A DNA stretch of 64,000 nucleotides from Thermoleophilia bacterium (GTDB lineage Bacteria; Actinomycetota; Thermoleophilia; Solirubrobacterales; 70-9). The number at the start of each line of letters is the position of its first letter. Position 1 is the stretch's first letter. Where the stretch lies: assembly GCA_016650125.1 (NCBI GenBank), contig JAENWT010000003.1, positions 62,001 through 126,000 on the forward strand, in the 5' to 3' direction. The notes beneath the pieces are model-generated. The model searched no databases. It was not told the DNA's origin and saw only the letters and a list, made by a program, of their open reading frames with translations. The position numbers and the translations under genes were made by a program. Below, piece by piece: positions 14,930 to 19,416 of this stretch.

Positions 14930-15799
14930 ATGACCACCACCAAAGGTTCAACTTTCTCCGCGACGCTGAGGACGACCATCCTTCTGGCGACCCTGTCGGG
15001 ACTGCTCGTCGCCATCGGGTACATCGTCAGCGGCGGCGATCCGAACATCACGCTGCTCTTCCTCGCCGGCGCGGTAGCGATGAACTTCTTCTCGTATTTC
15101 TTCAGCGACAAGCTCGCCCTCAAGATGAGCGGCGCCAAGCCGATGGAAGAATCCGAGAACGCGGAGTACTTCCAGATGGTTCGCGAGCTCTGCCAGCGGG
15201 CCGATATCCCCATGCCCCGGCTCTACGTGATCCCGCAGGAACAGCCGAACGCCTTCGCGACCGGCCGCAATTACAGCCACTCGGCCGTCGCCGTGACCGC
15301 CGGCATCACCAAGCTGCTTTCGCCGGACGAGCTGCGCGGGGTCGTCGCCCACGAGCTGGCCCATGTCAAGCACCGCGACATCCTGATCCAGTCGGTCGCC
15401 TCGACGATCGGCGCCGCGATCACCTACCTCGGCTACATGCTGCTGTGGTTCGGCAGCGACAACAACTCGCCGCTCGGCCTGGTCGGCGCGCTGGCCATGG
15501 TCCTGCTGGCCCCGCTGGCCGCATCGATCATCCAGCTTGCCGTCTCGCGACAGCGTGAGTACGCGGCCGACGCCGGCGGTGCCGTGATCTGCGGCAACCC
15601 GGAGTCGCTGGCCAGTGCTCTGCTGCGCCTCGAGCAGGGAGCAGACAACATCCCGATGACCGGCCGCGTGAACGAGGCCGCCGAGCCGCTCTACATCGTC
15701 ATGCCGTTCAAGGCCACCGGCATGAAGAAGCTCTTTTCGACCCATCCCCCGATCGAAGAGCGGGTGAAGAGACTGCGCCAGATGCGTCCCTCCCTGTAG
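14930..15799 (+). CDS. htpX: HtpX membrane zinc metalloprotease
   Basis: HtpX is an M48 membrane protease for quality control of membrane proteins. The 289-residue protein has N-terminal helices (about 15-35 and 38-58), the zinc site H141-E-L-A-H145 (VVAHELAHVKHRD), two more helices and the third-ligand region REYAADAGG. Length and order match the family. The ribosome binding site AAGGAG lies upstream of ATG 14930. It is a single-gene unit divergent from the two-component genes. Confidence 0.95.
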   Translation: MTTTKGSTFSATLRTTILLATLSGLLVAIGYIVSGGDPNITLLFLAGAVAMNFFSYFFSDKLALKMSGAKPMEESENAEYFQMVRELCQRADIPMPRLYVIPQEQPNAFATGRNYSHSAVAVTAGITKLLSPDELRGVVAHELAHVKHRDILIQSVASTIGAAITYLGYMLLWFGSDNNSPLGLVGALAMVLLAPLAASIIQLAVSRQREYAADAGGAVICGNPESLASALLRLEQGADNIPMTGRVNEAAEPLYIVMPFKATGMKKLFSTHPPIEERVKRLRQMRPSL

Positions 15800-15849: not shown

Positions 15850-17013
15850 ATGGCACCGGACACAGTCGCAGTTCAGGAGATCACTCCTCAGGAGGCTTTC
15901 GCCGAGCTCGAGTCGAGTGATGCTGTCCTGATCGACACTCGCGAGCCCTATGAGTATGCCGAGTCTCACATCGACGGCGCGAACCTGATTCCGCCGGCGA
16001 TGGTTGCGGACAACATCGCGGACAAGGTGCCGGACAAGTCGACCCGGGTCCTGCTCTCGTGCCGTTCTGGTGTCCGTTCGGCGACCGCGGCCGAAGTGCT
16101 GATGGGTATGGGTTACGAGGACGTGGCCTCGGTCGCGGGTGGCATCCTCGAATGGCAGGAGCAGGGTCTGCCGGTGATCGCCAGCACGGCGCTCACGCCG
16201 GAACAGCGCGATCGTTACTCGCGTCACACTCTGTTGCCCGAAGTCGGGGTGGACGGTCAGGTGAAGCTGCTCGAAGCCAAGGTGCTGCTGCTCGGCGCCG
16301 GCGGGCTCGGAGCGCCGACCGCTCTTTATCTCGCCGCGGCCGGGATCGGCAAGATCGGCTTGGTCGACGACGACGTGGTCGACGCCTCCAACCTGCAGCG
16401 CCAGGTGATCCACAAGACCTCCACGGTCGGCCAGTCGAAAACCAGCTCGGCCCGTCAGGCGATCGAGGACCTGAATCCGGACGTGGAAGTCGTCGAATAC
16501 AACTTCCGCCTCGACGCCGACAACATCCTCGACGTGATCGGTGACTACGACATCATCGTCGACGGTGCCGACAACTTCCCGACGCGATACCTGCTGAATG
16601 ATGCGTCGGTCCGGCTGAAGAAGCCGGTCGTCTCGGCTTCGATCCTCTCCTTCGACGGTCAGATCTCGACCTTCATGCCATACGAAGGCCCCTGCTACCG
16701 CTGCCTCTACCCGACCCCGCCGCCGCCGGAACTCGCTCCGAGCTGCTCGGAGAACGGCGTGCTCGGTGTGATGGCCGGCGTGATGGGCCTGCTCCAGGCA
16801 AACGAGGTCATGAAGCTCGTCCTTGGTATCGGCGAACCGCTGATCGGTCGCCTGCTGCTCTACGAATCCCTCGGGACCCGCTTCACCGAGCTCAAGGTCC
16901 GGCGTGATCCGGCCTGCCCGATCTGCGGACCGGACGCCCCCGAGGTTCCGGAATCCGAGATAGGCCAGTTCCCCGATTACGACGCCTTCTGTGGCGGACA
17001 CACCGGTTCCTGA
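15850..17013 (+). CDS. Rhodanese-ThiF sulfur-carrier activating enzyme (MoeZ-like, domains in reversed order)
   Basis: The 387-residue cytoplasmic enzyme joins an N-terminal rhodanese domain (about 8-110, active Cys C71 in SCRSGVRSA) to a ThiF/MoeB adenylating domain (about 120-375). The latter has ATP motif GAGGLG at 149-154 and two zinc CxxC pairs (CYRC, CPIC). Such enzymes adenylate the C-terminus of a sulfur carrier and convert it to a thiocarboxylate. In mycobacterial MoeZ and human MOCS3 the rhodanese domain is C-terminal; here it leads. It is followed after 30 nt by cysO, the probable substrate. ATG 15850 is chosen (AAGGGAAA upstream) over an in-frame start at 15820. Confidence 0.9.
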   Translation: MAPDTVAVQEITPQEAFAELESSDAVLIDTREPYEYAESHIDGANLIPPAMVADNIADKVPDKSTRVLLSCRSGVRSATAAEVLMGMGYEDVASVAGGILEWQEQGLPVIASTALTPEQRDRYSRHTLLPEVGVDGQVKLLEAKVLLLGAGGLGAPTALYLAAAGIGKIGLVDDDVVDASNLQRQVIHKTSTVGQSKTSSARQAIEDLNPDVEVVEYNFRLDADNILDVIGDYDIIVDGADNFPTRYLLNDASVRLKKPVVSASILSFDGQISTFMPYEGPCYRCLYPTPPPPELAPSCSENGVLGVMAGVMGLLQANEVMKLVLGIGEPLIGRLLLYESLGTRFTELKVRRDPACPICGPDAPEVPESEIGQFPDYDAFCGGHTGS

Positions 17014-17043: not shown

Positions 17044-17319
17044 ATGCCGACCGTAAGGATTCCGCCTGTTCTCCGCCAGCACACCGACGGTGCCACCGAG
17101 GTGGATGCCGGCGGCTCCAACGTGGGCGAGGTGCTCCAGGCCCTGGTCGACCAGCACCCGGCAACCAAGGCCCAGCTCTTCTCCGACGATGGCGACCTCA
17201 ACCGGTTCGTCAACGTCTATCTGAACGACGAAGACGTACGGGTCCTCGACGGACTCGACACCGCCGTCAGCGATTCAGACACGGTGATGATCCTCCCGGC
17301 AATGGCCGGCGGCTCTTAG
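17044..17319 (+). CDS. cysO: CysO-type sulfur carrier protein with C-terminal Gly-Gly-Ser
   Basis: The 91-residue ubiquitin-fold protein is MoaD/ThiS-like (PTVRIPPVLRQHTDGATEV start, VNVYLNDEDVR, VMILPAMAGG end). In the mycobacterial pathway CysO-thiocarboxylate gives its sulfur to O-phosphoserine through CysM, and Mec then releases cysteine. All partners are encoded here. Carriers normally end in Gly-Gly; this one carries one extra Ser (GGS, then TAG), so the Gly-Gly end would first have to be exposed by a protease, perhaps the JAMM enzyme Mec. The reading frame leaves no doubt about the last codons. Confidence 0.88.
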   Translation: MPTVRIPPVLRQHTDGATEVDAGGSNVGEVLQALVDQHPATKAQLFSDDGDLNRFVNVYLNDEDVRVLDGLDTAVSDSDTVMILPAMAGGS

Positions 17320-17806: not shown

Positions 17807-18067
17807 CTACTCCCCGGGAAGGGGTTCTGCGACCTCGACGTCGGCGAGGATCTTCTTCGCTTCTTCTTCGGCGCTGGCCGGCACGACTATATGCCTGGGG
17901 CCGATCGCGAAGAGATCGGCGAGGAACTGGCCCTCTGGCTTCCTGGTCATGCTCGGGATTCCCTCCTCGCGGAGGATCCCCTGAATCAGGTCGGCTTCGG
18001 TCTGGTTGGCGGCGAACGCCACTTCGACCGGCTCCGGGGGGCGTTCAGACCGCCTGAAAATCGACAT
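17807..18067 (-). CDS. DUF2007-like small protein overlapping mec
   Basis: The 86-residue soluble protein has a DUF2007-type pattern: VEVAFAANQTEADLIQGILREEG, then a GPRHIVVPASAEEEAKKIL region. DUF2007 is annotated as a putative signal-transducing domain of unknown mechanism. ATG 18067 lies 23 nt inside the end of mec, so the genes are coupled as the third member of the cysM-mec operon. A longer frame upstream is a shadow of mec and is not used. Confidence 0.75.
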   Translation of the reverse strand: MSIFRRSERPPEPVEVAFAANQTEADLIQGILREEGIPSMTRKPEGQFLADLFAIGPRHIVVPASAEEEAKKILADVEVAEPLPGE

Positions 18068-18443
18068 CTTCGACCGAGTGTCCGTTGATCCGGAAGCCCC
18101 GGATGTACGGCTCGTCCGGGTTCTCGAGCGAGACGATGAAGTAGACGGGATCCGGCCAGCCGTTGGCGAGGTTGATGTCGGTTTGCGAAGGAACCGCGGC
18201 GGTCTTGGTGTGCGAGTGGTAGATCCCGACGATGTCTTCGCCCGCATCGAGGATCGTCTTGTAGATCTCGAGTTGCTCTTTCGAGTCGATCTCGTAGCGC
18301 AGGGGGCTCTTGGCCTTGTTGTGCGCACGGTGGAGCGACTTTGCTTCGTCGCCGACGCCGCCGATCAGGCCGCAGCATTCGTTCGGCGCGTCGGCCTTGG
18401 TGTGCTCGACCATCTCGTCGAGCAGTCCTTTGGGGATTTTCAT
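18045..18443 (-). CDS. mec: Mec-type JAMM/MPN+ metallopeptidase
   Basis: In the CysO pathway Mec hydrolyses the CysO-cysteine adduct to release cysteine. The 132-residue protein has a complete JAMM zinc site: E22 (NECCG) and H76-S-H78-x7-S86-x2-D89 (YHSHTKTAAVPSQTD). The gene starts 4 nt after the cysM stop. Since the cognate CysO ends in Gly-Gly-Ser, this peptidase may also remove the last residue (inference). Confidence 0.93.
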   Translation of the reverse strand: MKIPKGLLDEMVEHTKADAPNECCGLIGGVGDEAKSLHRAHNKAKSPLRYEIDSKEQLEIYKTILDAGEDIVGIYHSHTKTAAVPSQTDINLANGWPDPVYFIVSLENPDEPYIRGFRINGHSVEDVDFQAV

Positions 18444-18447
18444 CCGG

Positions 18448-19416
18448 TTACCACCAGTTGGTGGCGTCGATGTCGCCCAGCTCTTCGATCGACTTTGTGT
18501 AGAGGCCGGAGGAGAGGTACTTCCAGCCGCCGTCGGGGATCAGGAAGACGATGTTGCCGCTCTCGATCTCGTTGGCCATACGTACTGCGATGGCCGCCAC
18601 CGCTCCTGACGAGACGCCGGCGAAGATGCCTTCGTCCTCAAGCAGGCGCTTGGTCCAGATGATCGCGTCCCGGTTGGAGACCATGATCTTCCGGTCGAGC
18701 AGGGAGAGGTCGATGATCGGCGGGATGAAGCCGTCGTCGAGGGAGCGCAGGCCCTGGACGTCTTCGCCCTGCATCGGCTCGGCGGCGACGATCTGGGTCT
18801 CGGGGTCGTGCTCCTTCAGGCGGCGGCCGTTGCCCATCAGGGTGCCGCCGGTGCCGAGGCCGGCCACAAAGGCGGCCACCGAATCGAGTTCTTCGAGGAT
18901 CTCGACCGCGGTGCCGTTGTAATGGGCGAGCGGATTGGCCTCGTTTCCGTACTGGTAAGGCATGTAGTACTGGGAATCCTCGGCCATCTCGAGCGCGACT
19001 TCGACCGAGCCGTTCGATCCTTTGGCGCCCTCCGACCAGACGATCTCGGCGCCGTACATCTGAAGGAGCTGGGTGCGCTCGGCGGTGACGTTGTCGGGCA
19101 TCACGACCTTGAGCTTGTAGCCCTTTCGCCGGCAGATCATCGCCAGGGAGATCCCGGTGTTGCCGGAGGTCGGCTCGAGGATGGTCTGGCCGGGAGCGAT
19201 CGCTCCGGAGTCCTCGGCGGCCTTCATCATCGAGCGGGCGACGCGGTCCTTTACGGAGCCGGTCGGGTTGGCCGATTCGAGCTTGGCGAAGAGCTTCACG
19301 TTCTCGTTCGGAGACAGGGTTCCGAGCTCGACCAGCGGCGTGTTGCCGATCGAATCGACGATGTCGGTGAAGGTGCCGCCGCAGGGCTTGTTCAGGAGGT
19401 CGTAGTAAGGGCTCAT
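18448..19416 (-). CDS. cysM: CysM-type cysteine synthase
   Basis: The 322-residue fold type II PLP enzyme has the Schiff-base Lys K56 (NPTGSVKDR), the TSGNTGISLA substrate loop and the GTGGTLMG phosphate loop. The mycobacterial homologue uses O-phosphoserine and CysO-thiocarboxylate as substrates rather than acetylserine and sulfide; the same is inferred here from neighbouring cysO and mec. ATG 19416 begins a natural N-terminus (MSPYYDLLNKPCGG); upstream in-frame codons run across the putative operator. First gene of cysM-mec-DUF2007. Confidence 0.93.
   Translation of the reverse strand: MSPYYDLLNKPCGGTFTDIVDSIGNTPLVELGTLSPNENVKLFAKLESANPTGSVKDRVARSMMKAAEDSGAIAPGQTILEPTSGNTGISLAMICRRKGYKLKVVMPDNVTAERTQLLQMYGAEIVWSEGAKGSNGSVEVALEMAEDSQYYMPYQYGNEANPLAHYNGTAVEILEELDSVAAFVAGLGTGGTLMGNGRRLKEHDPETQIVAAEPMQGEDVQGLRSLDDGFIPPIIDLSLLDRKIMVSNRDAIIWTKRLLEDEGIFAGVSSGAVAAIAVRMANEIESGNIVFLIPDGGWKYLSSGLYTKSIEELGDIDATNWW

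What the first reader, a model, noticed from the sequence alone, without database searches (positions are those of the whole stretch)
17308..17319. CysO ends in Gly-Gly-Ser instead of Gly-Gly
The last codons are GGC GGC TCT TAG. Adenylation and thiocarboxylation need a free Gly-Gly end, so one residue must be removed first. A JAMM peptidase (Mec) is encoded in the facing operon, and JAMM proteins are known to process other sulfur carriers with C-terminal extensions. Maturation by Mec would give this protease a second job and a control step before sulfur loading.
Basis: partly seen in the sequence, partly recalled or inferred. Interest (0 to 1): 0.62.

Follow-up and report, generated by a model that had tools for sequence, protein, structure and literature searches.

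The report
Sulfur carrier CysO with removable serine
The bacterium makes its cysteine-building sulfur carrier with one extra residue that must be cut off before use, almost certainly by the neighbouring Mec protease; this is an already known trick, but here one protease seems to have to unmask three different sulfur carriers in the same cell.

Summary
Confirmed: CysO (17044-17319, +) ends GGC GGC TCT TAG, so Ser follows Gly-Gly. It is not an error. In the survey across Actinomycetota, 131 of 162 CysM/Mec-linked CysO genes carry residues after an unvarying AGG. Tails are mostly 1-2 residues, with 11 different ones in the window's own genus. The threonine-synthase-linked paralog has a tail in 22 of 65, and standalone ThiS without an adjacent JAMM in 4 of 31. 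Tails never start with Pro (0 of 179) and favour Ala/Ser/Cys, the mark of a cut exactly after Gly-Gly. Two relatives encode CysO fused in frame to CysM or to the E1 enzyme.

The window's genome has one detected Prok-JAB protease, Mec. Three of its four sulfur carriers hide Gly-Gly: CysO-Ser, a ThiS-ThiG fusion and a MoaD-MoaE fusion.

Most likely Mec removes Ser after translation, the same chemistry as its known removal of Cys from CysO-Cys. JAMM maturation of "capped" carriers is published (Streptomyces PtmS1/PtmS2; D. radiodurans JAMM on MoaD-MoaE), so this is a new member of a known kind. A regulatory "control step" is not supported, because tails drift and are lost repeatedly. Cleavage by this Mec is inferred; no experiment was run.

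The parts
17044..17319 (+). cysO, 91-aa ThiS/MoaD-family sulfur carrier, made as CysO-Ser
17308..17313 (+). GGC GGC: the Gly-Gly that must be terminal for adenylation and thiocarboxylation
   Evidence: AGG present in every CysM/Mec-linked carrier surveyed (the survey regex asked for GG, but no carrier hit failed it)
17314..17316 (+). TCT: C-terminal Ser (P1' residue), predicted to be cut off
18045..18443 (-). mec, 132-aa JAMM metallopeptidase on the facing strand (E22, H76-S-H78, S86, D89 conserved)
18448..19416 (-). cysM/cysK-type cysteine synthase (Pfam PALP), directly upstream of mec on the - strand
15850..17013 (+). E1-like adenylyltransferase with N-terminal rhodanese domain, directly upstream of cysO
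14930..15799 (+). HtpX-like M48 metalloprotease gene upstream of the E1 gene (named by eye from its translated HELAH motif; not scanned against a library); considered and rejected as the processing protease
17807..18067 (-). DUF2007-type small protein overlapping the 3' end of mec; not thought to take part

Best explanation
CysO is translated as an inactive precursor, CysO-Ser. Mec, a zinc JAMM peptidase encoded on the facing strand, cuts the Gly-Ser bond, leaving a free Gly-Gly end. The E1-like enzyme then adenylates that end, sulfur is loaded as a thiocarboxylate, and the cysteine synthase builds CysO-Cys. Mec cuts the equivalent Gly-Cys bond to release cysteine and return CysO. The first cut is chemically almost the same as the last, so the precursor resembles the pathway's own product and any short tail is tolerated. 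Shown here: the masked end, its wide occurrence and rules, Mec's intact motif and fold, and the single Prok-JAB gene. From the literature: JAMM unmasking of other carriers, and CysO-Cys cleavage by mycobacterial Mec. Inferred: that this Mec cuts this CysO.
For: (1) Non-terminal AGG in 131 of 162 CysM/Mec-linked CysO, against 22 of 65 ThrC-linked paralogs (p=2.6e-11) and 4 of 31 standalone ThiS without an adjacent JAMM (p=5e-13). (2) Tails vary freely but never begin with Pro: 0 of 179, against 35 of 505 C-terminal residues of other genes; Ala/Ser/Cys make up 105 of 179 against 114 of 505. Pro is allowed later in the tail. This fits an endoprotease cutting just after GG. (3) In-frame CysO-CysM (L177) and CysO-E1 (L247) fusions, each with a JAMM gene in the same locus. 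(4) ThiS genes with a JAMM neighbour are masked in 12 of 12, others in 11 of 38. (5) The own genome has one Prok-JAB gene and three masked carriers: CysO, ThiS-ThiG, MoaD-MoaE. (6) The Mec model (pLDDT 94.8) matches P. furiosus JAMM1 bound to SAMP2 (5lda, TM 0.89). (7) Precedents: S. platensis capped carriers and the JAMM-knockout loss of thioacids (PMC6006322); DRJAMM cleaves MoaD-MoaE at the C-terminal Gly (PMC8832034); M. tuberculosis MoaX is cut between Gly82 and Ser83, also a Gly-Ser bond (PMC4326299).
Against: No biochemical test. The two paralog types split once on the tree, so that contrast is between two clades; averaged over sequence clusters it shrinks to 72% against 39% (p=0.007). 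Three genomes look like exceptions with no JAMM found even by profile: G021 (CysO tail R; cysO lies near a contig end), G059 (ThrC-type carrier, tail AG) and G241 (ThiS-ThiG fusion). In M. smegmatis the protease that cuts MoaX is unidentified (PMC4326299), so other proteases may cut after Gly-Gly.
Confidence: 0.8

Rival explanations
1. CysO-Ser is cut after Gly-Gly, but by a protease other than Mec (for example HtpX next door or an unidentified enzyme).
For: The protease that cuts MoaX after Gly82 in M. smegmatis is unidentified (PMC4326299). Three genomes have masked carriers and no detected JAMM. HtpX lies just upstream of the E1 gene in this family.
Against: HtpX adjacency is confined to the window's close relatives, while tails occur across the phylum. 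JAMM adjacency goes with masked ThiS. In S. platensis, losing the JAMM gene alone abolished thioacid production (PMC6006322).
Confidence: 0.12
2. Tails are trimmed from the end by unspecific carboxypeptidases, not cut at Gly-Gly.
For: Most tails are only 1-2 residues long.
Against: In-frame fusions to whole enzymes (L177, L247, ThiS-ThiG, MoaD-MoaE) cannot be trimmed that way. Pro is avoided only at the first position, not inside or at the end of tails (HP, APA, SPG). A carboxypeptidase would have no reason to stop at Gly-Gly.
Confidence: 0.03
3. The Ser stays on and this CysO works with it, or CysO no longer carries sulfur.
For: None found, beyond the absence of direct mass data.
Against: AGG does not vary in the CysM/Mec-linked set while everything after it drifts. 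A free C-terminal Gly is needed for adenylation of this protein family (E. coli MoaD mutants as summarised in PMC4326299). The E1, Mec and cysteine synthase genes are kept alongside.
Confidence: 0.03
4. Sequencing or assembly error at the last codon.
For: The window comes from a draft assembly of 41 contigs.
Against: 13 of the 16 own-genus genomes compared have a tail, of many different sequences; the same is true across the order and phylum.
Confidence: 0.02

Closest known systems
S. platensis PtmS1 (JAMM) with capped carriers PtmS2 (GG-MV) and PtmS3 (GG-C), PMC6006322
   Same: Actinobacterial carrier with 1-2 residues after GG, JAMM gene clustered with the capped carrier, and the JAMM needed genetically for thioacid production.
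   Different: There it was studied for thioplatensimycin; cleavage itself was not assayed in the passages read (caps were removed by cloning). Here the locus is the E1-CysO / Mec-CysM cysteine cluster and the cap is a single Ser.
M. tuberculosis CysO-Mec-CysM cysteine pathway (as summarised in PMC3227635)
   Same: Same carrier, protease and cysteine synthase; Mec cuts CysO-Cys.
   Different: M. tuberculosis CysO already ends in GG (3dwg_C), so no first cut is needed.
D. radiodurans DRJAMM and its MoaD-MoaE fusion (PMC8832034)
   Same: A JAMM protease exposes the C-terminal Gly of a sulfur carrier; the own genome here also has a MoaD-MoaE fusion.
   Different: A large partner is cut off rather than one residue, and for molybdopterin rather than cysteine.
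P. fluorescens QbsD/QbsE and W. succinogenes HcyD/HcyS-Ala (details recalled; QbsD role stated in PMC6006322)
   Same: JAMM protease removes 1-2 C-terminal residues (Cys-Phe, or Ala) from a sulfur carrier; HcyD also releases the amino-acid product, the same double role proposed here.
   Different: Siderophore and methionine pathways outside the Actinomycetota. My memory of HcyD was not checked: the paper is not held.
M. tuberculosis MoaX (PMC4326299)
   Same: Cut between Gly82 and Ser83, the same Gly-Ser bond, to free a carrier.
   Different: Fusion protein; protease unidentified.

Membership tests
CysO (sulfur carrier for cysteine synthesis) | ThiS/MoaD beta-grasp family ending in a conserved Gly-Gly | tested here: met
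   Pfam ThiS E=2.3e-14; aligns with M. tuberculosis CysO to the GG; the GG is followed by Ser, so it is terminal only after processing
CysO (sulfur carrier for cysteine synthesis) | Linked to E1/MoeZ, Mec and CysM | tested here: met
   All three lie within 2.5 kb and the link recurs in relatives
CysO (sulfur carrier for cysteine synthesis) | Carries sulfur as a thiocarboxylate used to make cysteine | not testable with these tools
   needs biochemistry
Capped sulfur carrier matured by a JAMM protease | One or more residues after the Gly-Gly | tested here: met
Capped sulfur carrier matured by a JAMM protease | JAMM gene clustered with the carrier gene | tested here: met
   mec at 18045-18443 on the facing strand
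Capped sulfur carrier matured by a JAMM protease | JAMM removes the cap | not testable with these tools
   mass spectrometry needed
JAMM/Mec metallopeptidase | E ... HxHx7SxxD zinc motif | tested here: met
   E22, H76-S-H78, S86, D89; motif in 170 of 172 homologs found
JAMM/Mec metallopeptidase | JAMM fold | tested here: met
   pLDDT 94.8; TM 0.87-0.89 to 2kks and 5lda

The most novel reading that the evidence does not exclude
In this lineage a single Mec is the general maturase of sulfur carriers: it frees CysO from Ser, ThiS from ThiG and MoaD from MoaE, besides releasing cysteine from CysO-Cys, so one protease gates cysteine, thiamine and molybdenum-cofactor synthesis.
Probability: 0.5. Interest if true: 0.55.

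Novelty: new member of a known kind. Interest (0 to 1): 0.42.

Why it matters
It turns a one-residue oddity into a testable rule: where a JAMM protease serves a sulfur carrier, the stop codon after Gly-Gly is free to drift, much as in eukaryotic ubiquitin and SUMO precursors. It makes M. tuberculosis CysO, which ends in bare GG, the exception rather than the model for the phylum. It also predicts that deleting mec in such organisms should hit cysteine, thiamine and molybdenum-cofactor synthesis together. For annotators, the extra residues are real and not frameshifts.

Tried and rejected
Sequencing error (rejected: different tails in many relatives). HtpX as the maturase (rejected: adjacency limited to close relatives). 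Carboxypeptidase trimming (rejected: in-frame fusions, Pro only avoided at the first position). Regulation by the tail (no conservation; frequent loss). A clean presence/absence test of Mec against tails was attempted but has little power: nearly all genomes with such a carrier have Mec. A tree-based independent-pairs test of carrier type against tail gave only one pair. Literature searches for CysO with JAMM and for QbsE and HcyS mostly found nothing usable, though led to PMC6006322; the Wolinella and 2-thiosugar papers are not held.

Full report
WHAT IS THERE. The last codons of the carrier gene are GGC GGC TCT TAG, giving ...ILPAMAGGS. Pfam calls it ThiS, and the nearest solved relatives include M. 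tuberculosis CysO, which ends exactly at GG. Upstream on the same strand are an HtpX-like protease and an E1-like enzyme with an N-terminal rhodanese domain; facing it are a JAMM protease (Prok-JAB) and a cysteine synthase. Naming this CysO and Mec is therefore reasonable, by family and by neighbourhood.

IS THE EXTRA SER UNUSUAL? No, it is the local rule. Within the family (50 genomes) and the order (80 named loci, mostly Solirubrobacterales and Thermoleophilaceae) the orthologs keep PAMAGG and then add nothing, R, A, S, Q, E, SR, SA, AS, GR, APA, STN and so on. In the window's own genus, 13 of the 16 genomes compared have a tail, with 11 different tails; the other three end in GG. The pattern continues across Actinomycetota, including large, Streptomyces-sized genomes with GG-MA.

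CONTROLS. I sorted carriers by neighbour. Of those linked to a cysteine synthase or Mec, 131 of 162 have residues after GG; of the paralogs next to a threonine-synthase-like gene, 22 of 65 (p=2.6e-11). The two types split once on the tree, so this is a contrast of two clades, but tail state changes at least 43 times over the whole tree, so there have been many separate gains and losses. Averaged over sequence clusters, the means are 72% and 39% (p=0.007). As an outside control I took ThiS from the same phylum: 4 of 31 standalone ThiS without an adjacent JAMM gene have a tail, while 12 of 12 ThiS with a JAMM neighbour have a tail or are fused to ThiG.

WHAT THE TAILS SAY. Median length is 2, whereas reading through a lost stop would give about 40 codons, so long tails seem mostly to be selected against. 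The first residue is never Pro (0 of 179) although Pro is common further along; Gly and Asp are rare or absent; Ala, Ser and Cys are favoured, with Cys 15 of 179 against 1 of 505 last residues of other genes. Cys is the residue Mec removes from CysO-Cys in the mycobacterial pathway (PMC3227635). A mutational contribution to Cys (TGA to TGC) cannot be excluded. The MoaD-MoaE and ThiS-ThiG junctions show the same Ala/Ser bias, though 42 fusions are too few to test Pro avoidance on their own (p=0.12). This is what an endoprotease cutting just after Gly-Gly would leave.

FUSIONS. In L177 the reading frame runs from CysO through AGG straight into a whole cysteine synthase with no start codon at the junction; in L247 it runs into the E1-rhodanese enzyme. 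Both loci also hold a JAMM gene. Such proteins should have to be cut after Gly-Gly to work.

THE OWN GENOME. It has four ThiS/MoaD-type carriers. The threonine-synthase-linked one ends in GG. CysO ends GG-Ser. ThiS is the N-terminal part of a ThiS-ThiG protein (QGG|AGEW). MoaD is the N-terminal part of a MoaD-MoaE protein (SGG|SGIR). Only one Prok-JAB protein was found in this 95% complete genome: Mec. MoaD-MoaE fusions recur in about half of the family's genomes, nearly all of which have Mec.

MEC. The JAMM residues are conserved in 170 of 172 homologs found. The predicted structure is confident (pLDDT 94.8) and closest to a Desulfitobacterium JAMM protein and to P. furiosus JAMM1, including its complex with the ubiquitin-like SAMP2.

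LITERATURE. JAMM unmasking of capped carriers is established: in S. platensis the carriers PtmS2 (GG-MV) and PtmS3 (GG-C) are described as capped, QbsD is named as the known uncapping protease, and loss of the JAMM gene ptmS1 abolished thioacid production (PMC6006322). DRJAMM cuts the D. radiodurans MoaD-MoaE fusion (PMC8832034). MoaX is cut between Gly82 and Ser83 by an unknown protease (PMC4326299). Iyer and colleagues foresaw in 2006 that JAB proteases would free ThiS or MoaD from fusions (PMC1779556). From memory only: HcyD of Wolinella removes Ala from HcyS and later releases homocysteine.

VERDICT. Observation confirmed; maturation very likely and by Mec most likely; regulation unsupported; a known kind of system, with the useful addition that one Mec faces three masked carriers in this cell.

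Noticed in passing
L359:1967-2938 (-), genome G000:C4 near 28234: The window's own genome encodes ThiS fused in frame to ThiG, with Gly-Gly buried (QGG|AGEW).
   Followed up: yes
L385:1489-2190 (+), genome G000:C6 near 57834: The own genome encodes MoaD fused to MoaE (SGG|SGIR); similar fusions occur in about half of the family's genomes with varying linkers.
   Followed up: yes
L177:746-2041 (-): CysO fused in frame to a cysteine synthase, with no start codon at the junction, in another actinobacterial family.
   Followed up: yes
L247:1848-3362 (-): CysO fused in frame to the E1-rhodanese enzyme; the first codon after GG is GTG.
   Followed up: partly
loci L174-L176, L185, L206, L239, L240, L259, L301-L326 (family f18): One actinobacterial family has a partly conserved tail ending Arg-Cys-(Arg/Lys/Leu), often with DNA CGATGT just before the stop; reason unknown.
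   Followed up: no
L343, L346, L348, L360, L362-L366 (family f18): ThiS-ThiG fusions with a second, separate JAMM gene about 2 kb from thiS, apart from the one beside cysO.
   Followed up: partly
17807-18067 (-): A DUF2007 small protein overlaps the 3' end of mec; the mec-DUF2007 pairing recurs in relatives.
   Followed up: no
14930-15799 (+): An HtpX-like protease gene sits upstream of the E1 and cysO genes in the window's close relatives but not in the wider order.
   Followed up: partly
L216:3365-3844 (-): A CysO homolog with a 41-residue tail made of near-repeats (ARGSGGLMPS...).
   Followed up: no
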